Notes: a model not told the origin generated them from the sequence alone. A stretch of DNA of 64,000 nucleotides from a virus (IMGVR_UViG_3300009177_000031:1-64000); one strand, 5' to 3'. Counted from the first letter of the stretch, positions 12,268-34,275 are shown. A program made the numbers and translations.

Positions 12268-12698
12268 GGTTCCTCGTCAAGCTTCAGGCGATCCTGTCGG
12301 AAGACAACGATCAGCTGCAACGCTACCTGGACTTCAATCAGGTGGTTGATGACACGCTTCCGACGACGCAAGACGGTGGCGTGTTCACGCTCGCTGCGCT
12401 TGCGACGCAGCAAGTGCTGTTTCCAAAGGTGACGAACGGCAAGTACCTCGCCATCGTCGTTTGGAGTGGCGAAGCGCAGTACCGCGTGAACAACATCGGT
12501 TCGCAGCTGTTGGGCATCAAGCCGAATCCAGCGACGACGCCGGATCCAAACCTGCCCTATCAGAAGACGGCGCAACCAGGACTCGTCTTCTGCGGACCGA
12601 TCAGCGTTTCAGCGCCGCTCACCGCGCTGTGGCTCGTCAACCCCTCGTCGACGACTCCTGCGCGTGTGCAGGTCGCGATCGTCGGTGAAGCTGCATAA
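12264..12698 (+). CDS. Beta-rich hypothetical protein, 144 aa
   Basis: Starts at GTG 12264 overlapping the previous stop. After a helical start (FLVKLQAILSED), the sequence is strand-rich with many Thr, Val, Pro (YLAIVVWSGEAQYRVNN, VFCGPISVSAPLTALWLVNP), ending VQVAIVGEAA. The composition is like that of virion decoration or base proteins seen later in the genome. It marks the entry into the head module. Confidence 0.55.
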   Translation: MRFLVKLQAILSEDNDQLQRYLDFNQVVDDTLPTTQDGGVFTLAALATQQVLFPKVTNGKYLAIVVWSGEAQYRVNNIGSQLLGIKPNPATTPDPNLPYQKTAQPGLVFCGPISVSAPLTALWLVNPSSTTPARVQVAIVGEAA

Positions 12699-12711
12699 CA
12701 AGGAGTCGATC

Positions 12712-14291: not shown

Positions 14292-16097
14292 ATGGCGCTT
14301 GTCGATCAGCACGGGCGAGAAGTCTCCGTCATGCCGGTGGATGCACCGGTATCGGAGCAAATCCAGAAGGCAGTCACAGCTGCAACGGAGGAGCTGTTCG
14401 ACAAGATGGATCGCGTGCTGTCGATGTCAGCACCACCGCCACCGAGCGCAAACGAGCCGAAGGGCTGGTACACCGATCCGTTTGCGCTTCTCGACTCGCT
14501 CGGCATGGGCTACCGCGCGAACCCAAGCCACGTGACGTACGAGACGCTTCGTCAAATGACGGAGCGCGACACGTTGCTTGGTAGCATCATCAACACGCGC
14601 ATCGCGCAGATCAGCACGTTCTGTCGCGAGCAAGAGAACAAGTACAGCGTCGGCAACCTGGTGCGTTTGAAGGGCGCCGATCGGCACAAGCGACGTCTGA
14701 CGAACGGTGAGAAGGATCGCAAGAAGAAGATCGAAGCCTACGTCGAGAACATGGGTGGCGAGCGCAACGTCACGCGCGACAAGTTTGGCAACGCGGTGAA
14801 GAAGCTCGTGCGCGACACGCTCTCGTACGATCAGGCGAACATCGAGAATCACTTCACGCGCGGTGGTGACCTGCACCAATCGCTCGTGCTCGACGCGACG
14901 ACGATTCGCATCGCCGATCAGACGAAGACGAACCCTCGCGGCATTCCGCTGAAGCCGTCCGACGAGAAGACGCACATCATGTACGCGCAGATCCTCAACG
15001 GAGAGATCGTGCGCGAGTTCACGCCTCGCGAGCTGGCGTTCCCAATTCGCAATCCGCGCTCGAACCTCAAGGTCGGTGGCTACGGCTTTCCAGAGCCGCA
15101 GCTCCTGATCCAAACCGTCACCGCCCACATTTGGGCTGAGGAGTGGAACCGCAAAGCGTTCTCGCAGGGCTCGACGATCAAGGGTGTCCTCAACATGCGA
15201 GGCAACATCGATCGTCAGAAGTACGACAACTTCAAGCGTCAGTGGACCACGCAGGTTGGTGGCATCACAAACGCGTGGAAGACGCCCATCATCAACAGCG
15301 ACGGCATCGACTTCGTTCCGATGCAGATGTCGAACACGGAGATGGGCTACCAGATGTGGATCGAGTATCTGGTCAAGATCGCGTGCGCCATCTACCAGAT
15401 GGACCCGACCGAGATCAACTTCGACCTGCGCGGTGGCAGTGGTACCGGTCAACAGCCGACGTTCGTCTCGTCAAACGAGGCGCAACAGAAGATGTCGCGC
15501 GACCGCGGTCTGCGCCCGCTGCTTCGCTTCTTCGAGGATCTGTTCAACCAGCACATCATCGATCGCATCGATCCTGACTTCGAGCTGGCGTTTGTCGGTC
15601 TCGACGCGAAGACGGAAGCGGAAGCGGTCGAGCTACGTCAGAAGCAAGGCCAAACGCACCTGACCATCAACGAGGTGCGCGCGCTCGAAGATCTGGATCC
15701 GATTCCTGGTGGCGACGTCATCATGAATCCGACGTACACCGGCTACCTGCTACAGCAACAGCAAATGCAAATGCAGGGTGGCGCTGGTGGCGGTGGTGGT
15801 GGAATGCCTGGCATGCCTGGTGGGCAGCAACAGCAGCAACCGCCAGAGCAACCGTACGCGAATCGGTTTGGACACGCTGGTTCGCCACCGACGGACGGTG
15901 CGAAGGCCGGCGCGAAGAACCTGCAATCGATGTCGCACAACAAGCCGCAGCAAGACGACGTGCACGACGAAGACGACGACATCCGCATCCTGCGGCGTGA
16001 CGATTGGTCATCGAGCGTTCACGCATCGGTGCGTGACAACGACCTGCGTAAGAGCGAGCGGAACGCGGTGGCGGACTTCTTCGAGATCGACCTGTAA
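14292..16097 (+). CDS. Portal protein
   Basis: 601 residues, the usual size for a portal. It would form the dodecameric ring at the head vertex through which DNA is packaged and to which the neck attaches. Visible portal features are RDTLLGSIINTRIAQIS near the start, VRDTLSYDQANIE, PRELAFPIRNPRSN, the crown-helix run, PIINSDGIDFVPMQ, AIYQMDPTEINF, and the EAQQKMSRDRGLRPLLRFFEDLFN helix. The C-terminus is Gln/Gly-rich (about residues 490-520) and probably disordered. The start is ATG 14292 with AGGAG upstream. No terminase is found directly upstream, so it must lie outside the window. Confidence 0.92.
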   Translation: MALVDQHGREVSVMPVDAPVSEQIQKAVTAATEELFDKMDRVLSMSAPPPPSANEPKGWYTDPFALLDSLGMGYRANPSHVTYETLRQMTERDTLLGSIINTRIAQISTFCREQENKYSVGNLVRLKGADRHKRRLTNGEKDRKKKIEAYVENMGGERNVTRDKFGNAVKKLVRDTLSYDQANIENHFTRGGDLHQSLVLDATTIRIADQTKTNPRGIPLKPSDEKTHIMYAQILNGEIVREFTPRELAFPIRNPRSNLKVGGYGFPEPQLLIQTVTAHIWAEEWNRKAFSQGSTIKGVLNMRGNIDRQKYDNFKRQWTTQVGGITNAWKTPIINSDGIDFVPMQMSNTEMGYQMWIEYLVKIACAIYQMDPTEINFDLRGGSGTGQQPTFVSSNEAQQKMSRDRGLRPLLRFFEDLFNQHIIDRIDPDFELAFVGLDAKTEAEAVELRQKQGQTHLTINEVRALEDLDPIPGGDVIMNPTYTGYLLQQQQMQMQGGAGGGGGGMPGMPGGQQQQQPPEQPYANRFGHAGSPPTDGAKAGAKNLQSMSHNKPQQDDVHDEDDDIRILRRDDWSSSVHASVRDNDLRKSERNAVADFFEIDL

Positions 16098-16101
16098 GGC
16101 G

Positions 16102-18633
16102 ATGCAGCTCATCTTCAAAGCGACGAACGTCAAGCATCCGGGTAGCCGCGGTGGGCAATTCTGGATCGACGACAAGGGGCAAGCTCGCTACGACGAGAAG
16201 CCGACGGAGCAGAAGCGTCCGCACAAGTACCTCGCAATCGTCACGCTGTCGGACGGCACCGAGAAGCGCATCGAGCCAAACGACGACGAGCTTGACGAAT
16301 ACGGTCAGGTGATCGGTGGTCAGGCGAAGATTCGCGAGATCATCAACCGCGCACTGTTCGGTGAGTACGGCTTCAAGCCAAACGGAACCTTCTGGCAGAA
16401 GAAGGGCATCCTCATCGAGTACAAGACGCGCACGACAACGCGCGGCAAGACGGAAGTCGACGCGATCCAGCGTCACCAAGGCTACACGTCGTTCGAGTTC
16501 CGTGATTCGTCCGTGTCGCGCGCGTACGGCGCAGAGCTTCCGAAGAAGATCACGCAGCACTACGTCGATCCGAAGGACGTCACGTCGAAGCACGAACCGC
16601 TTCCGTCGAAGGAGAAGATCGAGCTTCCTGAAGGCGCGACGTCGGATCAACCGCCGATCGAAGAGATGAGCATCCACACCGTGCCGAAGCGGTTGCCGAG
16701 CACGCTGACGGCGATTGGCGAGAAGCTGAAGGACAACGAGAACCCAATCGCAATCGCCGATGCGTACCTCGATGCGACGTTCCACGCGCGCAAGCCGAGT
16801 CAGGCGAAGACGGAAGCCGGACAGACCAAGGCGCGCGCAGAGCGCGAAGGTCAGTTCAACGAAGTCATCGGTCATCGCAAGATCGAGCGGCTACCGATTT
16901 GGGCAATCGCGAAGTACGACTCGCCAGCGCAATTGCAGCAAGAGCTGTCGCGCGATGGTGGACGTCCGCTCACGACGCTCATCACGCTCGGCGTTTGGGA
17001 TGAGAACAACAAGAGCAAGCGCGTTCGTGAACAGCTCATAGCGGAGTGGTCAGGCTTCTTGCGCCGCTGGTCGCAGCGCTTCGCGAGCGTGTACGCGAGC
17101 ACCGATTCGTACCGCAAGTTCGACAAGCTCGAAGGTGGGAGCAAGGCTGCGCGCGATTGGATGCACGATCGCCAGCGTGACCTGTTCAACGAAGGTGTCG
17201 CCGTGTTGCTGGACGAGGCGAACAAGTACCAGGCGAACGACGAGCCGGCCGGACCCGACAGCCGATTCGATCTGAAGGTCACGAACGCGATCAAGAACCA
17301 CCTGGAGAAGAAGGCGAAGCAGGCCGCAGTCGAGGTGCACGGCGCGACGTACTCCGAGGATTTGGCCGAAGAGGAAGCGTTCAGCCCACCGCGCATGCTC
17401 ACGCCGCGCGAGCAATTCGAGCTGCGTCACTTCGAGCCGCAAGCGATCGAGATTCTCAATTGGGCGACGTCAACGCTCAAACCAGAGCAACGTGCGGCGT
17501 TCAAGTCGCGTTTGTGGATCGACGACTACGAGAAGCATCCTGACGCATCAGAGGAGCGCGTTTGGAACGAGCGACGTGCCGAGCGTATGCAGAAGCACGG
17601 TGAGTCGAACCTGCATTGGGGACGTCCGTGGATTCGCTCTGGCGACAGCGGCACCGTGCAGGCGATGAGCGACATGCTTGGTGACATCGAAGTGAAGCTG
17701 CGCGGTGGTAAAGGCATCGCGAAGCTTCGCACGCTGAAGCCGCAGCATCAGATGTACTACCTGGAGAAGTGGTTCAACGAAGCGCAGGAGCACGTTCTCA
17801 ATCAGCTGAAGACGAAGGGCGGCGGTCTTTCGTCTGAAGGCAGGGTAGTCGAGCGCTGGCTGCGTTTGGAAGAGAAGCTCGCGCACGTGAACACGAAGGA
17901 GATCACGGACCGCGTGCAGCACAAGACGGTGCAAATGCCGCTGAAGCCGGCTGCGCCGATCGTCGAGCACAATCGCGCTCACGAGAACCCGTCCGTCACG
18001 TTCTTCAAGCAGCCTGGAACGAACCGCGAGCTGGCCGAGCGTCTCGGCATCCTCGGCGATCTCGATCTGCCCATCGCGCTGAAGAACGTGAACCTTCCGA
18101 AGCAATACGAAGAGAAGCTGAAGCGCGTCGAGGACTACCATCGGCGTTTGCAATCGAACCTGAAGCACGTTGGCGATCTTGGTGTGCTTCGCGACGAAGC
18201 GCATGCGGCGATGGAGCGTCACCGCAACATGGGCTCGTGGTACCACTCGCCGAGCGGTTCGATGGAGTGGCATGAGGACAACGGCGTGGTTGCTCTACAC
18301 GAAGCGTTGCTGAAGCTGCACAAGACGAAGGGCGAAGACCAAGCCGCTGTCACCGCGTTTACGAACGCCGCAAACGCGCTCGGCAAAGAGCATCCGATGG
18401 TGCAGGACTACGCGCGACGTTTGGCGACGCTCGGCATGGATCCACCGACGAGCACTGATCTCGCAGCGTGGAAGGCTCGCTCACATTCGGCGTATCGCGA
18501 GCACGCGAACCGGTTGCACCTGATCGAGTTCGCCCAAGAGCAACGCAACGCGAAGAAGTCGATCCGCGATTTGCGTGATGCCTTCAAGAAGTGCATCGGT
18601 GCGTACGACGATCTCAGGAAGGCGTTCGTGTAA
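16102..18633 (+). CDS. Large head-module protein with N-terminal GSRGGQFW module and sigma-70-like region
   Basis: 843 residues from ATG 16102, four bases after the portal stop. Residues 13-34 carry HPGSRGGQFWIDDKG, the shared module. Residues about 320-410 resemble sigma-70 region 2: helical FLRRWSQRFASVY, then DLFNEGVAVLLDEANKY (Asp360 onward) and RFDLKVTNAIKNHLEKK. A later LKPEQRAAFKSRL near 480 recalls region 4. The rest is long, helical and charged. It may be a virion-packaged regulator or an assembly protein. The sigma resemblance is by eye and needs a profile comparison. The stop TAA overlaps the next ATG by one base. Confidence 0.6.
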   Translation: MQLIFKATNVKHPGSRGGQFWIDDKGQARYDEKPTEQKRPHKYLAIVTLSDGTEKRIEPNDDELDEYGQVIGGQAKIREIINRALFGEYGFKPNGTFWQKKGILIEYKTRTTTRGKTEVDAIQRHQGYTSFEFRDSSVSRAYGAELPKKITQHYVDPKDVTSKHEPLPSKEKIELPEGATSDQPPIEEMSIHTVPKRLPSTLTAIGEKLKDNENPIAIADAYLDATFHARKPSQAKTEAGQTKARAEREGQFNEVIGHRKIERLPIWAIAKYDSPAQLQQELSRDGGRPLTTLITLGVWDENNKSKRVREQLIAEWSGFLRRWSQRFASVYASTDSYRKFDKLEGGSKAARDWMHDRQRDLFNEGVAVLLDEANKYQANDEPAGPDSRFDLKVTNAIKNHLEKKAKQAAVEVHGATYSEDLAEEEAFSPPRMLTPREQFELRHFEPQAIEILNWATSTLKPEQRAAFKSRLWIDDYEKHPDASEERVWNERRAERMQKHGESNLHWGRPWIRSGDSGTVQAMSDMLGDIEVKLRGGKGIAKLRTLKPQHQMYYLEKWFNEAQEHVLNQLKTKGGGLSSEGRVVERWLRLEEKLAHVNTKEITDRVQHKTVQMPLKPAAPIVEHNRAHENPSVTFFKQPGTNRELAERLGILGDLDLPIALKNVNLPKQYEEKLKRVEDYHRRLQSNLKHVGDLGVLRDEAHAAMERHRNMGSWYHSPSGSMEWHEDNGVVALHEALLKLHKTKGEDQAAVTAFTNAANALGKEHPMVQDYARRLATLGMDPPTSTDLAAWKARSHSAYREHANRLHLIEFAQEQRNAKKSIRDLRDAFKKCIGAYDDLRKAFV

Positions 18634-20858
18634 TGCAGGTCATCCTCAGCGGCCACACGGTGCGCGCCGATTTGGAAGCAACGCCAATCGGCGCATTCGA
18701 CGTCATTCGTGACGACGTGCGCATGATCTCCACGGTGAAGCCGGTCGAGCGCATCTTCATCGAGCGCACCGAGACCGGCTATCGCGGCGTGCTGTACTCG
18801 AACGAGAAGCCGTTCCTGTTCGCGCTGAACGGCAACGGTTTCACCGCGAAGCCGATTGCGCAGGATGCGACGGTGTTCGCGTACTGCGACCGTTTGCAGG
18901 ACGAGGAGCGCGACCTGACGATGCGCCTTGATCAAGAGCGCGCAGACGCGGACATGGTGGATGTGAATCGTGTGATGTTCGAGCGCGACTCGAACCTGAC
19001 CGATGATGCAGCTGTGGCTCGCGAAGACGCGTCGCCTGCGACGCTGAAGGTGTGGGGACCGTCAGTCGACATCGCCGATCCAATCGAGCGCGTTCCTGGT
19101 GCGTATCGCAAGATGCGCCAGGGTGGATCGTCACTCGAAGGCAAGCGCAACAACGGCGTTTGCGGTGGCGGCATCGTGATGAAGGATGGGAAGGTGCTTC
19201 TCGTCAAGCCGCGTGGTGGATGGGGTGGCTACGATTGGACGTTCCCGAAGGGCTACCCGGCCGCAATCGACAACAACCATTTGGAGCAAACGGCGGTGCG
19301 CGAGGTGTGCGAGGAGACCGGCTACCGCGTCTTCGCCAATCGCTTCATCGGTCGCTTCTCGCACAACGATGGTGGTGTTTGCGACTACTTCTATTGCGAT
19401 GTCGACAACTCGAAGGAAGCCGGCACGCCGGATCCGCACGAGACGTCGGCGATCAAGTGGTGTTCGCTGGTCGAAGCGTTGGAGCTTCTCAACGATGACG
19501 TCGACGTGAAGATCCTGGCGCAAGCGAACAACCTGCTACCGCAATTGATCATCAAGTCGGAGGGCCACACCGGAACGATGGTGGCGCTGCATCTTCCGAC
19601 GGACATCGCAAAGAAGATCGCACTGAAGGGCGGTGAGGACCCTGCAAAGCTGCACATCACGCTCGCGTACCTCGGCAAAGGACTCAGCGAGCAACAGAAG
19701 AAAACCGCCGCTTCTGTGGTGCGCAGGTTTGCAGAGTCGATCGTCGATGGCTTGAAGGTGACGCTCGGCGGTGTCGGTCGCTTCAGTGCGAGCGGCACGA
19801 CGGAGGGGCGTGACGTTATCTACCTGTCGGTCGATTCGCCATCGCTCACGCGCGTTCGTCCAGAGCTGGCGAACATGCTGCGCGAGGCAGGCTTCGACTT
19901 CGACGTGCAGCACGGCTTCATTCCGCACGTGACGCTCGCGTACGTCGACAAGGACGAGAAGACGCCGATCAATCGCGTGGAGCCGATTGAGATCAAGTTC
20001 GACACGATCTCACTCACGATCGCGAACAAGCAGATGACGTTTCCGCTGAAGCTGTCGAAGCAGAACCAAGAGTTCTACGACGTGGGCCGGCGCAACTACG
20101 AAGCGCTGATGAAGTGGCGCGTCGATAAGCTGGAGAAGATGTACGGCGTCAGGTTGCCGATCAAGCCGCAGGAGTCGGCGACGTTCGTGCGTTTGGACAA
20201 GAGCCTCGATTACGAGCCAGTGATGGTGAAGGCGTTGCCGCGCATGAACAGTGACCAACGCGACGCGAAGAACAAGAAAGTCGGCGTGAAGCCGCCTGGC
20301 GCAGCGAAGAAGCAAGCCGGTGCGACCGGCAAGACGCGCTACACGTATCCGGCCGAGCAAGCAAACGCGAAGCCTGGACAGCCGCAACAGCCTGGTGGGC
20401 AACCGCAGCAACCTGGTGCGCCTGGACAGCCGCAGCAAGGTCAGGATCAGGTGCTTCCGCATCCTGACACGCCGCCGCCGCAACCCGAGCAAGCTCCGAT
20501 TGCAGCCGAGCATCCTGACAAACCGCCGCAGAACGATCCGCGTGGTCCCAATCCGCAAGAGCCGCAGCAACCGAAGCACACGATCAACATCGGCGAGCTG
20601 TGCGCAGCGCTCGGTGTTCAGCGCTCGGTGCTTCAGCAAATCGTTGCGCGCATGCAAAAGAACTTCGGCGCTGACGCGCGGAAGAAGTTCGTGTCGTTCA
20701 TGAGTGTGCAGCTGAAGCAGTTTGCGGACGAGCACGGTTTGGAAGGCGACTACTTCGGTTTGCTGTTCGATGTGCTCACCGGAAAGGTGCAGGAAGGTCA
20801 GCCTGCATCGCAACAGCAACCGCAACCGCAGGGAGGAAGCCGTGGCGCTAAAGCGTGA
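18633..20858 (+). CDS. Nudix hydrolase fused to 2H phosphoesterase
   Basis: 741 residues. Residues about 174-300 are a Nudix domain: GGGIVMKDGKVLLVKPRG, then WTFPKGYP, then the Nudix helix TAVREVCEETGY (Arg223, Glu224, Glu227, Glu228). The first Glu of the Nudix box is replaced by Asn in an extended loop. Residues about 315-440 are a 2H phosphoesterase (2'-5' RNA ligase-like) with HITLAYLG (His341, Thr343) and HVTLAYV (His432, Thr434). The N-terminus (1-140) is unknown. The C-terminus is Pro/Gln-rich (about 570-650) then a helical domain. Nudix enzymes hydrolyse nucleoside diphosphate derivatives; 2H enzymes open cyclic phosphates and include the anti-CBASS protein Acb1. The position between head genes suggests virion association. 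The substrate is unknown. Confidence 0.82.
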   Translation: MQVILSGHTVRADLEATPIGAFDVIRDDVRMISTVKPVERIFIERTETGYRGVLYSNEKPFLFALNGNGFTAKPIAQDATVFAYCDRLQDEERDLTMRLDQERADADMVDVNRVMFERDSNLTDDAAVAREDASPATLKVWGPSVDIADPIERVPGAYRKMRQGGSSLEGKRNNGVCGGGIVMKDGKVLLVKPRGGWGGYDWTFPKGYPAAIDNNHLEQTAVREVCEETGYRVFANRFIGRFSHNDGGVCDYFYCDVDNSKEAGTPDPHETSAIKWCSLVEALELLNDDVDVKILAQANNLLPQLIIKSEGHTGTMVALHLPTDIAKKIALKGGEDPAKLHITLAYLGKGLSEQQKKTAASVVRRFAESIVDGLKVTLGGVGRFSASGTTEGRDVIYLSVDSPSLTRVRPELANMLREAGFDFDVQHGFIPHVTLAYVDKDEKTPINRVEPIEIKFDTISLTIANKQMTFPLKLSKQNQEFYDVGRRNYEALMKWRVDKLEKMYGVRLPIKPQESATFVRLDKSLDYEPVMVKALPRMNSDQRDAKNKKVGVKPPGAAKKQAGATGKTRYTYPAEQANAKPGQPQQPGGQPQQPGAPGQPQQGQDQVLPHPDTPPPQPEQAPIAAEHPDKPPQNDPRGPNPQEPQQPKHTINIGELCAALGVQRSVLQQIVARMQKNFGADARKKFVSFMSVQLKQFADEHGLEGDYFGLLFDVLTGKVQEGQPASQQQPQPQGGSRGAKA

Positions 20859-23208
20859 TCTGATGAAAGCAACGGTGCAGAACCCTGGCTCGCGCGGTGG
20901 CAAGTTCTGGCGTGACGAGAAGGGCGTCATTCACTACGGCGAGAAGCCGGTGGAGGACAAGATCCAGGAGCGCGCGAAGTCGATCCTCGATCAAGTGAAG
21001 CGTCGCGCGCGTGGCAAGGGTGGCGAGATTGCGCTGTCGAAGCAGGATCTGGAGAAGCTGCTTGCGTCAGGCAAGTACGCGCTCGTGAGTGCAGGGCCGA
21101 ATCCAAACCACGCTGACGACAAGAATCTCAGCCAAGACGAAATCAAACGTCGCCACAAACAGCTCGGCGAAGACTTGGTCGATGCTGGCTACATGTTCAC
21201 GAACGTGACCGGTCACTACGGTGGAACCGAAGATTCGTACCTCGTGATGATTCACGATGCGGATCGTAAAGACGTCGACGAGCTTGGGAAGAAGTACCAC
21301 CAAGATTCGATCATCTACGGTGAAGCTGGGCACCAGGAGATGCGCTTCACTTTTGGTGAGCACGTTGGTACGATGCACACCGGTACGGGTTACGAAATCA
21401 AGAACGACGCTGACGACTTCTTCACGATCGTTCGCCATCCAGACGGAAGCTCGACGAAGTTTGCTCTCAACTTCGATTGGGACAAACGAGAGATTGCAAA
21501 AGCGCTCAAGCTGTTGTTCAAAGCAGAGAAGCCGGAAGAGAAGAAGCCGGCGAAAGACGAGAAGGGCGCTGGCTTCAACGAATCGATGGGTGAGCAACCG
21601 GTGGATGCACCGGTCGGATTCGGACCACGCATCGTCAAGTTGCCGATGCACCCAAACGCGGATGTGAATCCGAAGGTGCACGAGGCGAAGATGGAAGAGA
21701 AGAAGCAGCGCGAGAAGTCGCAACCGAAGCTCGCGCTGAAGAAGGGTGCTGGCTGGAACGATAAGGACGAGCGGATGTACCAGCACATCAAGGACAGCGG
21801 TGCGAGCGAGAAGATCGCTGCGGCTACCGTCAACAAGCAACGACGCAAGGAGGGCCGCGTGAAGAAGTCGAAGCCGAGTGTCACGCTGATCAAGGGCGTG
21901 CGTCCAGGTGCGAAGGGCGCAGGCTCACGCGGTGGCAAGATCGCGTACCACACTAAGAGCGGCAAGCCTGTGTATCAGTCGCAGGTGAAGAAGCAAGCGC
22001 CGACGTTTTCACAGATGGGCCACAACTGGACGAAGCACGCCGAGAACGCGGAGAAGAAGATCGCCGACTACAAGGCGGATCCGAACTCGAACAACCCGTC
22101 GCACTATCGTTCGTACGTCGGCGAAGCCGCAGGTAACCATGCGACCGCTGCGAAGCAGCATCTCGTCGCCGCGTTCTACCAGCATCACGCCGGTGACTCG
22201 GACAAGGCGAAGGAACACATGGCAGCGGCGGAACATCACGCCGAGCACGCGAAGAAGCACATGGAGACGTCGGCGAAGCACAAAGGTGACTACGGCGTCA
22301 AACATCATCACCAAACCGCGGTGCGTGCGATGAAGTGGTTCGATGCGAACCACGCATCGACACACGAAGCGGTGCACTACGGTCGCCATCCTGATCCTCA
22401 CATCGAATCGATTGCGCAAGACGCGCAGGATTCCGGCCGTCACGAGGAAGCCAAACGCATTCGTCACTCACAAGACGACGTCAAGAAGGCGCTCACGCCT
22501 AGCAACAACAACGGAGGAAACATGTCGAAGAACGAAGTCGCGGATCTGTTCAAGAGCGAGCTGGGCGAGAGCAACGCCAAGCCCATCACCACGTGCGTGC
22601 ACTGCAAGCACGACCTGACGCGAGACGATCTCAAGAAGGGTCTCGGCACGCACTTCGTCGCAGACGACAACGACAACCCGCACAGCGGTGGCGATGGTTC
22701 TGTCGAGGTCGTTCGCGGCGTTCCTGGCGCGAAGGAGAACGACGAAATCGCGCCGCTCTTGAAGGGTCTCAAGGGCAAGGAGGCCGGCGACAACGAGGAG
22801 TATCCGATCAGCAAGAGCGAGATGGCGACGATGGGCATGAGCGTCGACGGTCTCGATGATGGCTGGTACACGATCACCAAGAGCGAGATGCAGAAGCAGG
22901 CACCGGAGCATCTCGCGTACCTCGTCGATCGCAAGGAGCGCGTCGCGAAGGCGATCAAGCCGACGGTCAACGCGCTGAAGAAGGGCGAGGAGCCGATTCG
23001 CAAGGGTGACACGTCGCGCTCGACGACGGACGGACCGCACGGCTACTCGCCGCGCGCTGGCGGTGTTGTCGGTCCGAGCGGTGAATCGCTCGTGCAGTGG
23101 AGCGAAGGCTCGGACAAGCAGGTCGCCGAGTACATCGAGAAGTCCGGTCACGGCTACGGTCCTGGCAACGACGAGCCGATCCGCACGCAAGGTCGGGGGA
23201 CCTTCTAA
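20842..23208 (+). CDS. Mosaic head-module protein with two GSRGGK modules
   Basis: 788 residues from GTG 20842 (GGAGGAAG upstream, overlapping the Nudix-2H gene by 17 nt). Residues 15-36 carry PGSRGGKFWRDEKG. Residues about 70-220 are an alpha/beta domain (YALVSAGPNPN, GEDLVDAGYMF, DSYLVMIHDADR) that resembles the DUF3293 type. GWNDKDERMYQHIKDSGASE near 310 is a short helical motif known from other phage and bacterial proteins. A second module (residues 361-378, GSRGGK then HTKSGKPVY) leads to a His/Ala-rich helical region. The last 230 residues form a separate part (Cys pair TCVHCKHD) with its own internal start at 22522. Probably a multi-part virion protein. Confidence 0.65.
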   Translation: MALKRDLMKATVQNPGSRGGKFWRDEKGVIHYGEKPVEDKIQERAKSILDQVKRRARGKGGEIALSKQDLEKLLASGKYALVSAGPNPNHADDKNLSQDEIKRRHKQLGEDLVDAGYMFTNVTGHYGGTEDSYLVMIHDADRKDVDELGKKYHQDSIIYGEAGHQEMRFTFGEHVGTMHTGTGYEIKNDADDFFTIVRHPDGSSTKFALNFDWDKREIAKALKLLFKAEKPEEKKPAKDEKGAGFNESMGEQPVDAPVGFGPRIVKLPMHPNADVNPKVHEAKMEEKKQREKSQPKLALKKGAGWNDKDERMYQHIKDSGASEKIAAATVNKQRRKEGRVKKSKPSVTLIKGVRPGAKGAGSRGGKIAYHTKSGKPVYQSQVKKQAPTFSQMGHNWTKHAENAEKKIADYKADPNSNNPSHYRSYVGEAAGNHATAAKQHLVAAFYQHHAGDSDKAKEHMAAAEHHAEHAKKHMETSAKHKGDYGVKHHHQTAVRAMKWFDANHASTHEAVHYGRHPDPHIESIAQDAQDSGRHEEAKRIRHSQDDVKKALTPSNNNGGNMSKNEVADLFKSELGESNAKPITTCVHCKHDLTRDDLKKGLGTHFVADDNDNPHSGGDGSVEVVRGVPGAKENDEIAPLLKGLKGKEAGDNEEYPISKSEMATMGMSVDGLDDGWYTITKSEMQKQAPEHLAYLVDRKERVAKAIKPTVNALKKGEEPIRKGDTSRSTTDGPHGYSPRAGGVVGPSGESLVQWSEGSDKQVAEYIEKSGHGYGPGNDEPIRTQGRGTF
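22522..23208 (+). CDS. Possible internally initiated C-terminal product of the mosaic protein
   Basis: An in-frame ATG at 22522 is preceded by ACGGAGGAAAC, one of the strongest Shine-Dalgarno sites in the window. It lies exactly where the His-rich part ends and an Asn-rich linker (SNNNGGN) begins. Initiation here would give 228 residues beginning MSKNEVADLFKSELG, with CVHCKHD and a C-terminal GYGPGNDEPIRTQG stretch. Either two genes became fused in frame, or both long and short forms are made. The site is visible; use is inferred. Confidence 0.4.
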   Translation: MSKNEVADLFKSELGESNAKPITTCVHCKHDLTRDDLKKGLGTHFVADDNDNPHSGGDGSVEVVRGVPGAKENDEIAPLLKGLKGKEAGDNEEYPISKSEMATMGMSVDGLDDGWYTITKSEMQKQAPEHLAYLVDRKERVAKAIKPTVNALKKGEEPIRKGDTSRSTTDGPHGYSPRAGGVVGPSGESLVQWSEGSDKQVAEYIEKSGHGYGPGNDEPIRTQGRGTF

Positions 23209-23434: not shown

Positions 23435-26400
23435 ATGAACGACGACATCGATTTTGACGCGTTGTATGAAGGTCTCAACGTCGACACCGACTTGATGATC
23501 AAAGCGACGCTTCGCGTGCCTGCGCGTCCGATGAAGAACGCAGTCGCGCAATCGCTGTCGTTGGACCTGAAGGCTTTGTACAAGGCGCGCGCAGAAGCGT
23601 TGATGGCGGACATCACCGACGTGATGAACGAAGAGGAGCCGATTGCAAAGGCCGATCTGATCTTCGCGAATGGGCGCGTTTTGTTCAAAGCTTTGACAGG
23701 GCAACCGAAGCCACCACCTTCGGCACCGAAGCTTGAAACGCATCAGCAACCAGGTCACGCAAACGCACCGAAGACGCCGAGCGCTGGCGCAGGTGCGAAG
23801 TCGACGATGCCTGGTGGACAGCGTCGTCTCACAGCGTCCGGCTACATCCACGTCGAGACTCCTGGCTCGCGTGGTGGAAAGTTCTGGCGCGACGAGAAAG
23901 GCAACGTGCGCTACGGCGACAAGCCGAGCGGCACCTTCCAAGTGGAAGCGCCACCGCATGATGTCGTGGAGCACTACAGGAAGTATTACGCGCCGCAGCC
24001 GTTTGCAGCGCACAACCAGATGGACATGCACGAAGCTCTCATGCAGAGCGAAGTGCTCACGGAAGCCGATCACGGCTTCATGGACTTCTGGCACGAGAAC
24101 TACGATGAGGTTCTGAGCCTCATCAGTGGTGGCAAGCTCACGCGCAAGGACGTCGAGAAGGCCGGGGGTTTGCAGAACTGTTCGTTCCAGATCAACGGAC
24201 GTCCGTGCAGCGTGGGTGAGGCGATCGAGGAGTTCTTCAAGGCGAACGTCGGTGCGTTTGTCGGTGACGAAACGTACGGCGACATTGAGACGCCGGAAGA
24301 CATCCTCGAAGCGGTGCGCGGCTTGATGGACCGCTACCGCAAAGCGCTGCACGAAGATCCGAAGGTGCAAGCGCTCGCGCAAGCCGCAGCGGAGAAGCGC
24401 GAAGCCGAGCGCAACGCGTTCTACCTGACGTGCGAGCACACCGCGGAGGAGTTCTCGCCGCTCGCCGGCGATCTTGTCACGAAGGAGGACTTCGAGGATC
24501 TGACGTTCAAAGCGACCGCTGCAATGGCGCAGATGGGTCTCATCGAGCGCGGTGGCAAAGGCAGCGTTGCTCAGCGCCGCATGCGCGGTGCAATCGTTCC
24601 GAAGTCGAGCATGCTGTTGCAGGACAAGCGCAACATGGGTTCGCTTTGGAAGGACGATCAGCTCGAACGTCTCAGCGCGCCGCAGCTGATGGCGGTGCAC
24701 ATTGCAGTCGATGCGCAGGAGTCGTTCTCGAAGGACAACACCTACGAGTACGAGCCTGGTGCGCCAAACGCGAACCGCGACCGCGTGTTCGATCTCATTT
24801 GCAGCAAGCTCGGCGTCGACCCGGACGATCAGGTCGCGAAGAACACGCTGAAGCGCAAGCTGGAGAAGACGACGGAAGCGACGCTGCGCGCGATGACGAA
24901 CTACAACACCGGACAGGATCCGATGTTCGCGCTCGCGATGACGAAGCGCATCTGTGACATCTACAAGAACGCCGATTGGCTAGAAGACCACAAGAAGAAG
25001 GTCGCCGAGGAGCAATCGCGCATTCAGGAGATCCTCGCTGCGCAAGAGGACACGTCGTTCGAGCCTCCACCGTCGATGGTAAACGGCGTTTGGAACGGCA
25101 AGACGCTGAAGGATGCGAACAAGCCAGAGAAGGGCGTTTGGGCTCCGTTCGAGTACCAGAAGAAGTACATCAACTGGATGCTCAAGGCGAAGCGCGGTGT
25201 GATTGCAGCCGATGCCGGCATGGGCAAGACGCCGATCGTGATCGCGTTCCGTGAGCTGCTTGCATCGCAGGGCAAAGACGTTCCTGCCATTTGCTTCCTA
25301 CCACCGTCGTTGATGGAGCAGTGGCCTGCGGCGATCCAGAAGTTCGCGCCAGAGAACGCCGACAAGATCCTCAACCTCAGTGGTCTCTCGTTGGAGGAGC
25401 GCAAGGTCGCTTTGCAAAGCGACATGGCGAAGAAGGCTCGCTACATCTTCATCAGCACCGGCACGCTCACCGGTGACGTGCCGGATCCGAACTCGACGGA
25501 AGACGAGAACGATGGCACCGGTGGTTCTGACCACGAGATGGTCGAGATCCTGAAGAACCTCGAAGGCGCGGTGTTCATCGACGAAGCGCACCAAGGCGGT
25601 TACAAGAAAGCCGGCAACACGCGCCACGAGATTGCAAAGGCGGTGATGGAGGGTCGCGAGTACGCGTTCGGCATGACGGCTACGCCGATGCCAAACGATC
25701 CGATGGACGTCTATCACCTCGCGAACCTGTTTGCGCCTGGCAGCGTTGGTGACGCCGAGCTGTGGGCTGGTCGCACCGCTGGTGTGGCGTGGAACGAAGA
25801 GGAAGGTCGTTATGAGGTGTCGAACCCGGAGCACCTTGCAGAGCTGAACCAGCGCCTCAAGCCGTTCGTGTTCTACAAGAGCGTCAACGATCCAGACGTC
25901 GTGAAGGACATGGGCAAGGGTCTTCCGCAGAAGACCGGTGTGCACGAAGACTCAGCGATGCACGAGGGTGAGGGCGATCTGAATCTGTCAGGTCACTCGA
26001 ACGCGCAGAACGGTTTGTCGCAGCACGACTACTTCAAAGAGGGTGGTGTCATTGACACCATGATCGAGCTGCGCATCGCGCGTTTGGTGCGCGAGCGAGC
26101 GGAGAAGATTGCAAACGGCGAAGTGAATCCTTCGACCGGTGAGCCGTACAAGGCGTACCACCCCAAGTTCCTTCAGCTGATGGCTGGCGGCATGAAGATC
26201 ATGCTGCAACGGCAAGCGTCGATCTCGCCAGCGCTCATCGATCACACGTATCGCAAGTCCGATGGTGGCGTTGCGCACTCGCCGAAGATCAAGGCGCTGT
26301 GCGATGACATCGTCGCGCACTTCTCAAACGGTGGTCAGGGTGGTGACGACGCGAAGCCGCTCGTCGTGTTCTCATCGTTCCCTGGCAAAGCGTTTCCGCT

Positions 26401-27937
26401 CGTGCGCAAAGCGCTCGCCGAACGCGGTGTGGATCCGTCGCTCATCGAGACGATTGCAGGCGACGTCGCTCCGACGGAGCGCGGCTACATGCAGGACAAG
26501 CTGAACAAGGGCCACGCGAAGGTGCTCCTTGTCGGCACGATGTCAGGTGGCGCCGGTCTGAACCTTCAGGAAGCGGCGAACAAGACGCTGTTCCTCGATG
26601 AGCCGTGGAACCCGGCTGCAAAGCGTCAGGCGATTGGTCGCGTTTGGCGCACCGGACAGAACAACGTCGTGCACGAGAAGACGTACCGTTCGGTTGGTAC
26701 GTACGACTCGGTGGTGGAGCAGAAGATCGCAGGCAAGCAAGCGATGGTCGCTGCGCTTCTCGGAAAGGACATGCCGACGGAGGCATCGTTCAAGCCGGAC
26801 ACGTCGATCAAGGAGCTGCTTGGTCGCGTGAAGGGCACCGACTACACCGAGGATCAGATCAAAGCGATCATGGAGAACTCGAAGAACTACGATTTGGCTT
26901 CGAGTGAGCACAAGCAAGCCGAACAGCTTTTGCAATCGATGCACGATGAGGATTGGAAGGAGAAGGCCGGTGGTCAGGGCTTCGGTGGTGGCGTTTCCGC
27001 AACGCTGACCGACAAGGACTTCGAGCCGAACAAGGAAGCGCAGAAGACGCTCAAGAACAAGGGCGCGCACAAACTCACCGAAGCGTTCGATGAGAAGGAG
27101 TTCCGCGGCAAGTGGGAGATGGATCGCGATAAGCGCCGCTCGAAGCAGAACTACGAGATGGCGAACCTGATGGCTGACGTGTACAGCCAGCAAGGGAACA
27201 AAGAGAAAGCTGACGAGTACAAGCGTCGCGCTGACGAGCTTGCCGAGAAGTACCCTGAACTCGGTGGTGCAAAGGACGGTGGTGCGAAGAAGAAGGGCAA
27301 GGACGAGAAGCCGAAGGCCGAGAAGAAGGGCGACGAGAAGAAGCCTGCGAAGGGTGGCGACAAGAAGCAATCGAAGGAAGGTGGCGAGAGCGAGCAAACG
27401 AAACCGCCACCGCGCGCGACTGCAACGGTTGCTGACGCCGAGCACGAGCTGAAGCAAAAGGCGAAGGCGCAGGACGCGCACACCAAGACGCAAACGGAGA
27501 AGGTGAAGCAGCGCAAGCCGCAAGAGACGACGAACAAGCTCGGTGGCAATCCTGACGAGCAAGAGGCGCCGGTCAAGCCGGCGACCTTGAAGCAGCCGGT
27601 GGTGAAGCGCAACGAAGCGCTCGGTGTCGACTTCCACTCGAAGGACAATCCGTTCCCGGAGAACGGACGCAAGGTGAAGGGCACCGACGTCTCGAACGCG
27701 GAAGCGAACTACGTACTCGATGTGCTGCACAAAGAGAAGAAGCTGAAGTCGTGGGACGAGTTCATCACGACGCACATCAAGCCGGTTTGGGACGAAGAGG
27801 ACGGTCGCAATCCGTTCTCGATGAAGGCTGCGCACGAGTACGTCGGCAAGATCGTCGACGCGATCTCGAATCAAGGCTTGATGACGCTCAACGAGCCGAT
27901 GAAGGCTGCGAAGAAGCAGACCAAGAAGGAGAAGTAG
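23435..27937 (+). CDS. SNF2-family helicase/translocase in the head module
   Basis: 1500 residues. The helicase core spans about 565-1110. Motif I is DAGMGKT (Lys598), motif II is FIDEAHQGG (Asp716-His719), motif III is MTATPMP (747-753). Motif V is GGAGLNLQEA and motif VI is QAIGRVWRTGQ (Gln1065, Arg1069, Arg1072), the SNF2 pattern. It would translocate on duplex DNA using ATP. The N-terminus has the PGSRGGKFWRDEKG module (143-164), then a helical domain. The C-terminus is a long Lys/Glu/Gly-rich linker followed by a small domain. Unlike replication helicases it sits among head genes, as in P1 DarB-type injected proteins. Virion packaging is inferred. Confidence 0.88.
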   Translation: MNDDIDFDALYEGLNVDTDLMIKATLRVPARPMKNAVAQSLSLDLKALYKARAEALMADITDVMNEEEPIAKADLIFANGRVLFKALTGQPKPPPSAPKLETHQQPGHANAPKTPSAGAGAKSTMPGGQRRLTASGYIHVETPGSRGGKFWRDEKGNVRYGDKPSGTFQVEAPPHDVVEHYRKYYAPQPFAAHNQMDMHEALMQSEVLTEADHGFMDFWHENYDEVLSLISGGKLTRKDVEKAGGLQNCSFQINGRPCSVGEAIEEFFKANVGAFVGDETYGDIETPEDILEAVRGLMDRYRKALHEDPKVQALAQAAAEKREAERNAFYLTCEHTAEEFSPLAGDLVTKEDFEDLTFKATAAMAQMGLIERGGKGSVAQRRMRGAIVPKSSMLLQDKRNMGSLWKDDQLERLSAPQLMAVHIAVDAQESFSKDNTYEYEPGAPNANRDRVFDLICSKLGVDPDDQVAKNTLKRKLEKTTEATLRAMTNYNTGQDPMFALAMTKRICDIYKNADWLEDHKKKVAEEQSRIQEILAAQEDTSFEPPPSMVNGVWNGKTLKDANKPEKGVWAPFEYQKKYINWMLKAKRGVIAADAGMGKTPIVIAFRELLASQGKDVPAICFLPPSLMEQWPAAIQKFAPENADKILNLSGLSLEERKVALQSDMAKKARYIFISTGTLTGDVPDPNSTEDENDGTGGSDHEMVEILKNLEGAVFIDEAHQGGYKKAGNTRHEIAKAVMEGREYAFGMTATPMPNDPMDVYHLANLFAPGSVGDAELWAGRTAGVAWNEEEGRYEVSNPEHLAELNQRLKPFVFYKSVNDPDVVKDMGKGLPQKTGVHEDSAMHEGEGDLNLSGHSNAQNGLSQHDYFKEGGVIDTMIELRIARLVRERAEKIANGEVNPSTGEPYKAYHPKFLQLMAGGMKIMLQRQASISPALIDHTYRKSDGGVAHSPKIKALCDDIVAHFSNGGQGGDDAKPLVVFSSFPGKAFPLVRKALAERGVDPSLIETIAGDVAPTERGYMQDKLNKGHAKVLLVGTMSGGAGLNLQEAANKTLFLDEPWNPAAKRQAIGRVWRTGQNNVVHEKTYRSVGTYDSVVEQKIAGKQAMVAALLGKDMPTEASFKPDTSIKELLGRVKGTDYTEDQIKAIMENSKNYDLASSEHKQAEQLLQSMHDEDWKEKAGGQGFGGGVSATLTDKDFEPNKEAQKTLKNKGAHKLTEAFDEKEFRGKWEMDRDKRRSKQNYEMANLMADVYSQQGNKEKADEYKRRADELAEKYPELGGAKDGGAKKKGKDEKPKAEKKGDEKKPAKGGDKKQSKEGGESEQTKPPPRATATVADAEHELKQKAKAQDAHTKTQTEKVKQRKPQETTNKLGGNPDEQEAPVKPATLKQPVVKRNEALGVDFHSKDNPFPENGRKVKGTDVSNAEANYVLDVLHKEKKLKSWDEFITTHIKPVWDEEDGRNPFSMKAAHEYVGKIVDAISNQGLMTLNEPMKAAKKQTKKEK

Positions 27938-30226: not shown

Positions 30227-30973
30227 ATGCGTGACAACGACCTTCTAGACGGCAAAGACGACTTCTTGATTTGGACGCCGAGCTGCGTCGAGATCATCAT
30301 GAAGGCTGGTGTCGACATCGAGCGCACGCGTCCAATCGGTGGAACGTGTTCGACCGAGCGTCTCGATCGCCAGGACGAGAAGGTGTTCGCGAAGGGACTC
30401 GACTTCAACGAGTTCGTGAACCACGGCTACTTCAACGACAACCACAAGCAGAACACGGCTGACATCCTCGGCTATCCGAACATGGCCGAGCTACGCAAGG
30501 GTCGTTGGTGGACCGAAGGCAACTTGCTTCTCGATTGGGAGCCTGCAAATCGTGTTTGGGCGCTCGCGAAAGCGCTCTCAAAGAGCACTGCGAAACGCAG
30601 GCTCGGCTTCTCGATCGAAGGCAAGGTAACGGAGCGCGGTTACGACAACCGCATCACGAAGGCGATCATTCGCCACGTCGCAATCACCAATTCGCCGGTG
30701 AACACCGATTGCACGTGGGACATTCTCGCGAAGGCGTTTGGCTCGATGGAGGAGCTGGAAGGTGCTTCGTTGCGTCGCGCGCTGAGCGCGGGTGCTTCGT
30801 CGCCGGGTTCCAGTGGAGGCGCAGCGCTCGCAGGTGGGCGTGTGGAGCGCAAGCCGATCGAGCTGACGTTCGACGAAGCGGTGAAGGTTCTTAAAGCGCA
30901 TCGTCCGCAGTACGCGTGGGGAACGTGCGAGCGGCTCGCTCGTGTGATTTTCAAACAAGAACGGAGGAACTGA
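30227..30973 (+). CDS. Prohead (capsid maturation) serine protease
   Basis: 248 residues. It would cleave the scaffold and capsid precursor after prohead assembly. FNEFVNHGYFNDNHKQ supplies the catalytic His73 region, GRWWTEGNL and LAKALSK follow, and RRLGFSIEGKV holds the nucleophile Ser129. AIIRHVAITNSPVN matches the usual strand after it. This is the HK97/S78-like arrangement. Residues 185-201 (ALSAG-x2-SP-x3-GG-x-AL) closely match a segment of the capsid protein, suggesting a self-cleavage site. The C-terminal 45 residues end in RPQYAWGTCERLAR. Start ATG 30227 with AGGAG. Confidence 0.8.
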   Translation: MRDNDLLDGKDDFLIWTPSCVEIIMKAGVDIERTRPIGGTCSTERLDRQDEKVFAKGLDFNEFVNHGYFNDNHKQNTADILGYPNMAELRKGRWWTEGNLLLDWEPANRVWALAKALSKSTAKRRLGFSIEGKVTERGYDNRITKAIIRHVAITNSPVNTDCTWDILAKAFGSMEELEGASLRRALSAGASSPGSSGGAALAGGRVERKPIELTFDEAVKVLKAHRPQYAWGTCERLARVIFKQERRN

Positions 30974-32874: not shown

Positions 32875-34275
32875 ATGGAAGGCAATCACGTTGGTCTGTC
32901 TGACTACGAGGGACTGACCGGGTTCGGTCTGCTCCCGACCGGAGACACCGAGGAGATCCAAAAGGCTCTCTCGGCCGGCTACCAATCGCCGCGTCACGAC
33001 GGCGGTTCCGCACTGCGCGTGGAGTCGCTCGAAGCGACGCTGCGCATCCTCACGTTCTCGCAAGGACACGTGAAGCTCTGGAAGGACATTCCGAAGCTTC
33101 CGGCGTACTCGACGAGCGAGGAGTACACCGTGCAAACGGCGTACGGCGGTGAGAACGGACCGTTCACTCGTGAAGGCGAGCTTCCGCAAGTCCAGGATGC
33201 GACGTACGAGCGTCGTGTCGAGCTGGTGAAGTTCCTCGGCACGCAGCGCGAAGTGACGCATCCGGCGACGCTCGTGCGCAATGCGTACGGCAACATCATC
33301 GCTCGCGAGACGCAGAACGGCGCGATCTGGCTGATGGAGCGTCTGGAGCGCAACCTGTTCCGCGGTCAAGCGTCGGTCATCCCGGAGTGCTTCGACGGCA
33401 TCGACGAGCAGATCCTCCGCGATCCGTTCGCGAGCGCGAACAACGTGCTCGATCTTCGCGGCGGTCCGATCACGGAAGACGTGATGGAAGAGGCGACGAA
33501 CATCATCGTGGAGAACTACGGTCTCTCCTCGGCGCTGTACCTCGCACCGCGCGCGCATTCGGACATGTCGAAGCAGTTCTACTCGCGTCAGCGCGGTGGC
33601 TTCGGCGAGCGCGAGGGTCGCATCGGCTACTCGGCGAAGATGATGGAGACGAACGCGGGCGACATCGCGCTTCGTGGCGACATCTTCCTGCGCAGCGGCA
33701 AGAACAACGGCGTCAAGACGGCACCGGCCGGCCAGACGTCGGTGCGCGCGCCGAACGCTCCGACGACGGTCACGGGCGCGCACGGCGCGAACGCTGGCTC
33801 GCTGTTCGGTGCGGCGGATGCCGGCACGTACCAGTATTGCGTCACCGCGCTGAACCGCTTCGGCGAGTCGGCGCTGACGCAGGTTGCTGGTGGCGTTGCG
33901 CCGGTGTCCGGTGACGCGGTCACGCTCACGATCACCGATGGTGGTGGTGGTGACACGGCCACGGGTTACCGCGTCTACCGCTCGAAGAACGGTGGTGCGG
34001 TGGGCACGGAGCAATTCGTGCTCGACATCCCGCGTCCGACCGGCGCGGCGACGACGGCGTTCGTCGACGTCAACCAGTTCCTGCCAGGCACGTCGCGCGC
34101 GTACCTGTTGCAGATGAACCTGCAATCGCTGTCGTTCCGACAGCTCGCTCCGATGATGAAGATCCCGCTCGCGACGCTCGCCGCGTCGATCCGCTGGATG
34201 CAGCTCATCTACGGAACGCCGATCGTGTACGCACCGCGCAAGAACCTGATCCTCATCAACGTCGCCGACGACTGA
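32875..34275 (+). CDS. Major capsid protein with Ig/FN3-like insertion
   Basis: 466 residues, ATG 32875 with AAGGAG. It would form the head shell with an HK97-like fold: an N-terminal delta region, VKLWKDIPKLPAYS, EREVEL-type helix region, QNGAIWLMERLERNLF spine and ALYLAPRAHSDMSKQF. Residues about 295-400 form an extra beta domain (TYQYCVTALNRFGESAL, TGYRVYRSKNGG) of fibronectin-III/Ig type, probably exposed on the capsid surface. It ends with IYGTPIVYAPRKNLILINV, the usual last strand. ALSAGYQSPRHDGGSAL (31-47) resembles the protease C-terminal segment and is the likely maturation site. A terminator follows. Confidence 0.85.
   Translation: MEGNHVGLSDYEGLTGFGLLPTGDTEEIQKALSAGYQSPRHDGGSALRVESLEATLRILTFSQGHVKLWKDIPKLPAYSTSEEYTVQTAYGGENGPFTREGELPQVQDATYERRVELVKFLGTQREVTHPATLVRNAYGNIIARETQNGAIWLMERLERNLFRGQASVIPECFDGIDEQILRDPFASANNVLDLRGGPITEDVMEEATNIIVENYGLSSALYLAPRAHSDMSKQFYSRQRGGFGEREGRIGYSAKMMETNAGDIALRGDIFLRSGKNNGVKTAPAGQTSVRAPNAPTTVTGAHGANAGSLFGAADAGTYQYCVTALNRFGESALTQVAGGVAPVSGDAVTLTITDGGGGDTATGYRVYRSKNGGAVGTEQFVLDIPRPTGAATTAFVDVNQFLPGTSRAYLLQMNLQSLSFRQLAPMMKIPLATLAASIRWMQLIYGTPIVYAPRKNLILINVADD

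What the first reader, a model, noticed from the sequence alone, without database searches (positions are those of the whole stretch)
18633..20858. Nudix hydrolase fused to a 2H phosphoesterase inside the head module
Both catalytic signatures are visible in one protein (REVCEETG; HITL and HVTL). 2H enzymes open cyclic nucleotides, including Acb1 against CBASS, and handle ADP-ribose cyclic phosphates; Nudix enzymes cleave ADP-ribose-type or dinucleotide substrates. A single polypeptide doing both steps could destroy a defence signal (cyclic oligonucleotide, cADPR variants) or rescue NAD/tRNA-repair products. The head location suggests delivery with the genome.
Basis: partly seen in the sequence, partly recalled or inferred. 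Interest (0 to 1): 0.83.

Follow-up and report, generated by a model that had tools for sequence, protein, structure and literature searches.

The report
Phage head-region enzyme with swappable parts
A virus of bacteria carries, among its shell-building genes, a protein with two nucleotide-cutting enzyme parts; relatives show that one part is constant and the other is an exchangeable add-on, which fits a known but untested idea that such proteins are injected with the viral DNA to destroy the cell's alarm molecules.

Summary
Gene 18633-20858 (741 aa) carries a NUDIX domain (Pfam E 3.7e-13) and a 2H phosphoesterase domain (E 6e-11), with motifs REVCEETG, HITL and HVTL intact. AlphaFold2 models the 2H half confidently (pLDDT 87). 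It is nearest to LigT/RNA 2',3'-cyclic phosphodiesterases and misses the Acb1 cut-off. The Nudix half is nearest Ap4A hydrolases; its fold model failed. The gene lies between the portal and the head protease/major head protein of a contractile phage (88,309-bp record).

Five IMG/VR relatives change the interpretation. All keep the 2H domain in the head block, right after the portal or one gene later. Two have the Nudix; in three it is absent or replaced by a ParB-like domain in the same slot. Neighbouring genes gain SNF2-helicase and SAM-lyase-like modules in the same way. The Nudix is therefore an optional cassette on a 2H core, which favours independent tools over one obligate two-step reaction.

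This is a new architecture within the published polyvalent-effector class, where head-fused 2H and Nudix domains were already predicted as injected counter-defence (PMC5512222, PMC9503650). Packaging, injection, substrates and the defence countered are all untested.

The parts
18633..20858 (+). Nudix-2H head-module protein, 741 aa
   Evidence: ORF and translation; Pfam; orthologues L011 and L019 align along the whole length (59% and 57% identity)
18633..18962 (+). N-terminal domain (residues 1-110) shared with the Nudix-less orthologues; no family match
   Evidence: alignment; 55-58% identity to L011/L019 and 29-34% to L022/L024/L025; no Pfam or PHROG match for residues 1-172
19155..19547 (+). 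Nudix hydrolase cassette (residues 175-305)
   Evidence: Pfam NUDIX E 3.7e-13 (genome-wide search places it at 19173-19514); nearest PDB chain Ap4A hydrolase 3i7u; missing from L022, L024 and L025
19299..19322 (+). Nudix box core REVCEETG
   Evidence: read from the translation; R-E-V-x-E-E-T-G conserved in L011 and L019
19554..20066 (+). 2H phosphoesterase domain (residues 308-478), the constant core
   Evidence: Pfam; AlphaFold2 pLDDT 87.1; Foldseek best matches drCPDase and E. coli LigT; 52-57% identity in all five orthologues
19653..19664 (+). first 2H motif HITL
   Evidence: H and T invariant in 29/29 sequences
19926..19937 (+). second 2H motif HVTL
   Evidence: H and T invariant in 29/29 sequences
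20568..20807 (+). conserved C-terminal helical domain (residues 646-725) after a Pro/Gln-rich linker
   Evidence: 68-73% identity to L019/L011 and 32-37% to the Nudix-less orthologues
14331..16097 (+). portal protein
   Evidence: PHROG portal E 9e-53; about 42% identity to SPO1 gp3.1
16102..18633 (+). unknown 843-aa protein between portal and Nudix-2H gene; starts with the repeated PGSRGGQFW peptide; absent from this position in L022, L024 and L025
20863..23208 (+). next head-block gene; its N-terminal S-adenosylmethionine-lyase-like module (21121-21429) is lacking in the orthologues L011 and L019
   Evidence: PF23780 E 4.9e-8 for the isolated module and E 9.5e-10 in the genome search, found in 1 of 6 records
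23435..27937 (+). 1500-aa protein with SNF2-type helicase module (SNF2 hit at 25154-25936); the homologues in L022 and L024 lack the helicase
   Evidence: (present in window, L011, L019; no match in the L022, L024, L025 records)
30227..30973 (+). head maturation protease
   Evidence: phrog_1028 E 1.4e-44
32875..34275 (+). major head protein
   Evidence: phrog_752 E 1.7e-87

Best explanation
This is a modular, probably virion-associated effector protein of a contractile-tailed phage. Shown here by sequence: a conserved head-block protein has as its constant enzymatic core a LigT-like 2H phosphoesterase, and the slot before that core holds an Ap4A-hydrolase-like Nudix domain in this lineage, a ParB-like domain in another, and nothing in two more. 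Inferred: the protein is packaged into or onto the head and enters the cell with the DNA. There the 2H domain cuts cyclic or 2'-5'/3'-5' linked (oligo)nucleotides through its two H-x-T motifs, without metal. The Nudix domain cuts pyrophosphate bonds of NDP-X or dinucleoside-polyphosphate molecules, with metal. Together they remove more than one kind of nucleotide alarm signal before host defence is fully switched on. The two domains most likely act independently on different molecules.
For: Domain identity. Catalytic 2H residues invariant in 29/29 phage sequences. Position between portal and protease/major head protein. The same 2H family is fused directly to head components in other phages: Mu-type portal, Phage_portal_3, prohead protease S78, XkdF protease, capsid protein, weakly Mu-like protease; head maturation protease and MuF/capsid maturation protease in annotated actinophages. 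Modular swap: Nudix in window, L011 and L019; none in L022 and L025; ParB-like domain in L024 (phrog_1033 E 1.8e-4). The 2H domain keeps 52-57% identity across both groups while the flanking domains fall to 29-37%. Neighbouring genes carry optional SNF2 helicase and SAM-lyase-like modules; SNF2, ParB-like and 2H domains are all listed components of polyvalent proteins (PMC5512222). Published prediction that head-fused 2H and Nudix domains are injected to counter host nucleotide signalling (PMC9503650). LigT-like phosphodiesterases of viruses repeatedly act on immune nucleotides (PMC11410667).
Against: No direct evidence of packaging, injection or activity. Neither domain can be tied to a substrate: no NCBIfam cut-off is reached. 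The virus record may be a fragment and the host is unknown, so the defence it might face is unknown. The Nudix fold could not be modelled. Only two other Nudix-bearing relatives were found.
Confidence: 0.5

Rival explanations
1. One enzyme, two sequential steps: the 2H domain opens a cyclic phosphate and the Nudix domain then cleaves the pyrophosphate of the same molecule. ADP-ribose 1'',2''-cyclic phosphate is the one commonly discussed metabolite that contains both bonds.
For: Both bonds occur in that molecule, and an analogous Nudix-cRec fusion has been proposed to do exactly this (PMC9503650). The Nudix is strongly conserved within its lineage (64-79% identity) up to an invariant segment at the 2H junction (LVEALELLNDDVDVKILAQAN).
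Against: Orthologues with the same 2H domain lack the Nudix or carry an unrelated domain in its place. No KptA, the usual source of that metabolite, was found in this record or in the 118.7-kb relative. The Nudix looks more like Ap4A hydrolases than ADP-ribose hydrolases.
Confidence: 0.15
2. RNA attack rather than signal destruction: the Nudix removes NpnN or NAD-type 5' caps and the 2H domain acts as an RNase or RNA-end processor, so the injected protein degrades or reprograms host RNA.
For: An RNase role for head-fused 2H domains is one of the two proposals of PMC5512222. The Nudix resembles Ap4A hydrolases, and in L019 it also matches RNA pyrophosphohydrolase models weakly (E 6e-5, far below cut-off).
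Against: Nearest solved 2H relatives are LigT/RNA 2',3'-cyclic phosphodiesterases rather than Usb1-like RNases. No RNA-binding domain was recognised.
Confidence: 0.15
3. tRNA repair: the protein processes 2',3'-cyclic ends and by-products during sealing of tRNAs cut by host nucleases.
For: LigT-like 2H enzymes act on 2',3'-cyclic phosphate RNA ends; phages do use 2H enzymes in tRNA repair (PMC9503650).
Against: No KptA or PF09414 RNA ligase in the record or the 118.7-kb relative (the PF09511 search was uninformative because no control rang; records may be incomplete). PMC5512222 reports that this kind of 2H domain was never seen with RNA ligases. A late head-block position does not suit a repair enzyme made during infection (inference).
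Confidence: 0.06
4. Structural passenger: a head or connector protein in which the enzymatic folds have been retained only as structural modules.
For: The N- and C-terminal domains are conserved without a known enzyme match and the gene is in the structural block.
Against: Catalytic residues of the 2H are invariant in 29/29 sequences across many fusion contexts, and REVxEETG is kept in all three Nudix copies.
Confidence: 0.06

Closest known systems
Polyvalent proteins of phages (Iyer et al. 2017, PMC5512222)
   Same: Several effector domains in one polypeptide, encoded in the portal/packaging context; 2H, ParB-like and SNF2 domains are all listed components; head-fused 2H domains predicted to degrade nucleotide signals or RNA
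   Different: The passages read here do not describe a Nudix-2H combination in one head protein or a slot that is filled, swapped or empty in orthologues; the figures and supplements were not available
Head-associated Nudix and 2H domains and Nudix-cRec fusions (Iyer et al. 2022, PMC9503650)
   Same: Same functional proposal: virion-packaged Nudix and 2H domains counter NAD/ADP-ribose or oligonucleotide signals
   Different: There the fused pair described is Nudix-cRec; here it is Nudix-2H, and the Nudix resembles Ap4A hydrolases more than NudE
LigT / ThpR RNA 2',3'-cyclic phosphodiesterases
   Same: Best structural and profile matches of the 2H half (drCPDase 5h7e E 2.4e-9, TM 0.68; E. coli LigT)
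   Different: About 20-25% identity, embedded in a 741-aa head-block protein, below the NCBIfam equivalog cut-off (40.8 against 65.7 bits)
Acb1 anti-CBASS nuclease
   Same: 2H fold with two H-x-T motifs; weak similarity (Pfam Acb1 E 0.0046; Foldseek TM 0.43-0.54)
   Different: Below the Acb1 curated cut-off and structurally further than LigT; not a member by these tests
2H domains in head maturation protease / MuF / 'RNA ligase' genes of actinophages (MelBins gp19, BabyGotBac gp11, Salgado gp18)
   Same: Same 2H family in the same genome region near portal and protease; GMA6 and MelBins proteins also among the top viral structural matches
   Different: 28-36% identity over the 2H domain only; no Nudix domain is reported under these matches

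Membership tests
Nudix hydrolase | Pfam NUDIX profile above curated cut-off | tested here: met
   50.1 bits against 21.1; L011 and L019 also above cut-off
Nudix hydrolase | Canonical box GX5EX7REUXEEXGU | tested here: inconclusive
   REVxEETG core present in all three; full spacing and first Glu canonical only in L019; window and L011 have a 2-residue insertion
Nudix hydrolase | Nudix fold | tested here: inconclusive
   AlphaFold2 model failed for this half: pLDDT 45 with only three Nudix sequences
2H phosphoesterase superfamily | Two H-x-T/S motifs in an internally duplicated fold | tested here: met
   HITL and HVTL, invariant H and T in 29/29; confident model with 2H structural neighbours
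LigT/ThpR RNA 2',3'-CPDase | Closest fold and sequence relatives are LigT/CPDase | tested here: met
   top 15 PDB matches are LigT/CPDase-type entries; profile search agrees
LigT/ThpR RNA 2',3'-CPDase | NCBIfam equivalog TIGR02258 above cut-off | tested here: not met
   40.8 bits against 65.7
Acb1 (anti-CBASS) | Pfam Acb1 PF23474 above cut-off | tested here: not met
   17.1 bits against 27
Acb1 (anti-CBASS) | Hydrolysis of 3'3'-cGAMP and related cyclic oligonucleotides | not testable with these tools
   needs biochemistry
Phage polyvalent protein | Two or more effector domains in one polypeptide encoded in a portal/packaging context | tested here: met
   Nudix plus 2H two genes downstream of the portal
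Phage polyvalent protein | Packaged in the virion and injected | not testable with these tools
   gene position and head-protein fusions of relatives only
Nudix-cRec fusion of PMC9503650 | cRec (receiver-like) domain in the same protein | tested here: not met
   no receiver-type Pfam match at E up to 0.1; the second domain is 2H

The most novel reading that the evidence does not exclude
The head block of this phage lineage is a rack of conserved virion proteins with slots into which injected counter-signalling enzymes are exchanged: a constant 2H phosphodiesterase plus optional Nudix, ParB-like, S-adenosylmethionine (or SAM-AMP) lyase-like and SNF2 modules. In this phage the loaded set would let one virion disarm several classes of nucleotide second messenger (cyclic oligonucleotides, NDP-X or dinucleoside polyphosphates, SAM-AMP) at the moment of DNA entry.
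Probability: 0.25. Interest if true: 0.75.

Novelty: new variant of a known kind. Interest (0 to 1): 0.46.

Why it matters
If true, phages can load several signal-destroying enzymes into the particle and exchange them like tools while keeping a common carrier protein, so defences that rely on nucleotide alarms could be silenced before the phage makes any protein. The set of orthologues with, without, and with a different cassette gives a natural comparison for assigning function to each half. It also adds evidence, invariant active sites across many head-protein fusions, for a prediction about head-fused 2H and Nudix domains that has been in the literature since 2017.

Tried and rejected
1) Close assignment to Acb1: rejected, profile and fold are nearer LigT. 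2) tRNA-repair context: KptA (PF01885) and RNA ligase (PF09414) searches negative in the window's record and the 118.7-kb relative; PF09511 was uninformative because no control rang. 3) Nudix-plus-receptor fold model: the AlphaFold2 job on residues 1-314 with 6 sequences failed (pLDDT 45), so no fold search was run on it. 4) Prophage relatives: the genome-contig scan with the Nudix-2H alignment found none. 5) Relatives by single-protein scan: none; the A2 alignment was too divergent to scan with. 6) The 16102-18633 protein looked by eye like sigma-70 region 2; profile searches gave no support. 7) Nudix relatives in annotated phages are weak and none is a Nudix-2H fusion (two inspected). 8) Paper searches for LigT anti-defence and Ap4A-hydrolase anti-defence in phages found nothing. 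9) The solved-structure search with the SAM-lyase-like segment found nothing, so that module rests on Pfam alone.

Full report
WHAT IS THERE. The window is bases 1-64000 of an 88,309-bp IMG/VR virus record. The gene at 18633-20858 starts with an ATG that overlaps the stop of the gene before it and encodes 741 residues. Pfam finds NUDIX at residues 181-294 (E 3.7e-13) and 2_5_RNA_ligase2 and LigT_PEase, both 2H phosphoesterase families, at about 339-450 (E 6e-11 and 4e-7), all above their curated cut-offs; Acb1 appears only below cut-off (E 0.0046). The Nudix box is slightly irregular in the window and in L011 (two extra residues, first Glu missing), but canonical in relative L019.

WHERE IT LIES. 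The portal (14331-16097) is about 42% identical to that of Bacillus phage SPO1 and its relatives. Downstream come the head maturation protease (30227-30973) and the major head protein (32875-34275), then a tail sheath at 38444-40234 and baseplate proteins, so this is a contractile-tailed phage. The Nudix-2H gene is the second gene after the portal.

THE 2H HALF. AlphaFold2 with 29 phage sequences gave a confident model (pLDDT 87, pTM 0.83). Foldseek against the PDB puts RNA 2',3'-cyclic phosphodiesterases/LigT first (drCPDase E 2.4e-9, TM 0.68; E. coli LigT), then rotavirus VP3, AKAP18, Usb1 and, lower, Acb1 (TM 0.43-0.54). A profile search of PDB sequences gives the same order. Against viral models the best matches are proteins of Gordonia and other actinophages annotated 'RNA ligase' or uncharacterized. 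Both H-x-T motifs are invariant in 29 of 29 sequences, which speaks for an active enzyme.

THE NUDIX HALF. The nearest solved relatives are Ap4A hydrolase of Aquifex, C. trachomatis CT771 and Thermus Ndx1, with human bis(5'-nucleosyl)-tetraphosphatase also in the list. NCBIfam matches are all far below cut-off, best to mycobacterial MutT1. The substrate is unresolved, but a dinucleoside-polyphosphate or NDP-X substrate is the most likely class (inference). The fold model of this half failed.

THE RELATIVES CHANGE THE INTERPRETATION. Two scans of IMG/VR found two syntenic relatives with the full Nudix-2H protein, L011 and L019. A scan with the 2H domain found three more orthologues: L022, L024 and L025. 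In these the portal is about 52% identical to the window's and the 2H gene follows the portal directly. The 2H domain is 52-57% identical to the window in all five, while the N- and C-terminal domains drop from 55-73% in L011/L019 to 29-37% in the other three. L025 and L022 have no Nudix. L024 has a ParB-like domain (phrog_1033 E 1.8e-4) in the same place. A genome-wide NUDIX search found none in the L022, L024 and L025 records, which are fragments of 10-30 kb. So the 2H domain is the constant core and the Nudix is an optional cassette.

THE NEIGHBOURS BEHAVE THE SAME WAY. The gene at 20863-23208 begins with an S-adenosylmethionine-lyase-like module (PF23780, E 9.5e-10) that is absent from its orthologues in L011 and L019 and found in only one of six records. 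The gene at 23435-27937 contains an SNF2 helicase in window, L011 and L019, while the 474-485-aa homologues in L024 and L022 lack it. The gene at 16102-18633 is missing from that position in L022, L024 and L025. A repeated peptide, PGSRGGKFWRDEKGxxRYGEKP and variants, stands next to several of these modules in this lineage.

HOW IT MOST LIKELY WORKS. Shown by sequence: two enzymatic domains with intact catalytic residues, head-block position, and the swapping of the Nudix. Also shown: the same 2H family is fused directly to portals, prohead proteases, XkdF, capsid protein and MuF-type proteins in other phages. Inferred: packaging, injection and destruction of host nucleotide signals. This proposal is not new. 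PMC5512222 (2017) predicted it for 2H domains fused to MuF or portal, with an RNase role as alternative. PMC9503650 (2022) predicted it for head-fused Nudix and 2H domains and discussed Nudix-cRec fusions acting on ADP-ribose 1'',2''-cyclic phosphate. The passages read do not mention a Nudix-2H head protein; figures and supplements could not be checked.

ONE MOLECULE OR TWO? The optional Nudix argues against an obligatory two-step reaction, because the same 2H core persists without it. It does not exclude cooperation where both occur; the strong conservation of the Nudix-2H junction within the lineage leaves room for that. The suggestion that the 2H half opens cADPR isomers is chemically unlikely: 2'cADPR and 3'cADPR are closed by a ribose-ribose glycosidic bond (PMC13232231).

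LIMITS. The host is unknown, the virus record may be incomplete, only three Nudix-2H sequences are known to me, and no substrate can be assigned from sequence. All statements about injection and function are inference. Confidence: domain architecture about 0.97, optional-cassette pattern about 0.9, virion association about 0.65, counter-signalling function about 0.5.

Noticed in passing
window 16138, 20884, 23861 (variant at 21919 and in the 12664-14280 ORF): A recurrent peptide PG[S/T]RGGKFWRDEKGxxRYGEKP lies at the start of, or at module junctions in, several consecutive head-block proteins; it recurs in L011, L019, L022 and L024 but gave no significant match in 50,697 annotated phages. It could be a packaging or processing signal, or a recombination seam for cassettes.
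   Followed up: partly
window 20863-21573: S-adenosylmethionine-lyase-like module (PF23780) grafted onto a head-block protein, present only in this phage among six relatives; possible anti-restriction, anti-BREX or SAM-AMP-degrading function. Myxococcus phage Mx1 has a homologue in the gene just before its tail sheath.
   Followed up: partly
window 16102-18633: Unknown 843-aa protein conserved in L011 and L019. By eye a segment (DLFNEGVAVLLDEANKY...SRFDL..NAIKNHL) recalls sigma-70 region 2, but profile searches gave no support.
   Followed up: partly
window 23435-27937: 1500-aa head-block protein with an SNF2-type helicase (weak relation to DarB-like antirestriction, phrog_10089); the helicase is absent in the shorter homologues of L022 and L024.
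   Followed up: partly
L024:3927-5933: ParB-like domain occupying the slot where the window's orthologue has its Nudix domain.
   Followed up: yes
record positions 83024-84184 and 84799-86943 (L010:3024-4184 and L010:4799-6943): AAA_5 ATPase followed by a cobaltochelatase CobT-like protein.
   Followed up: no
L044:4518-8867: 1450-aa phage protein combining 2H, an ATP-dependent DNA ligase-type domain and the XkdF protease.
   Followed up: no
L048:4902-8276: 2H domain fused in one 1125-aa ORF with the phage major capsid family.
   Followed up: no
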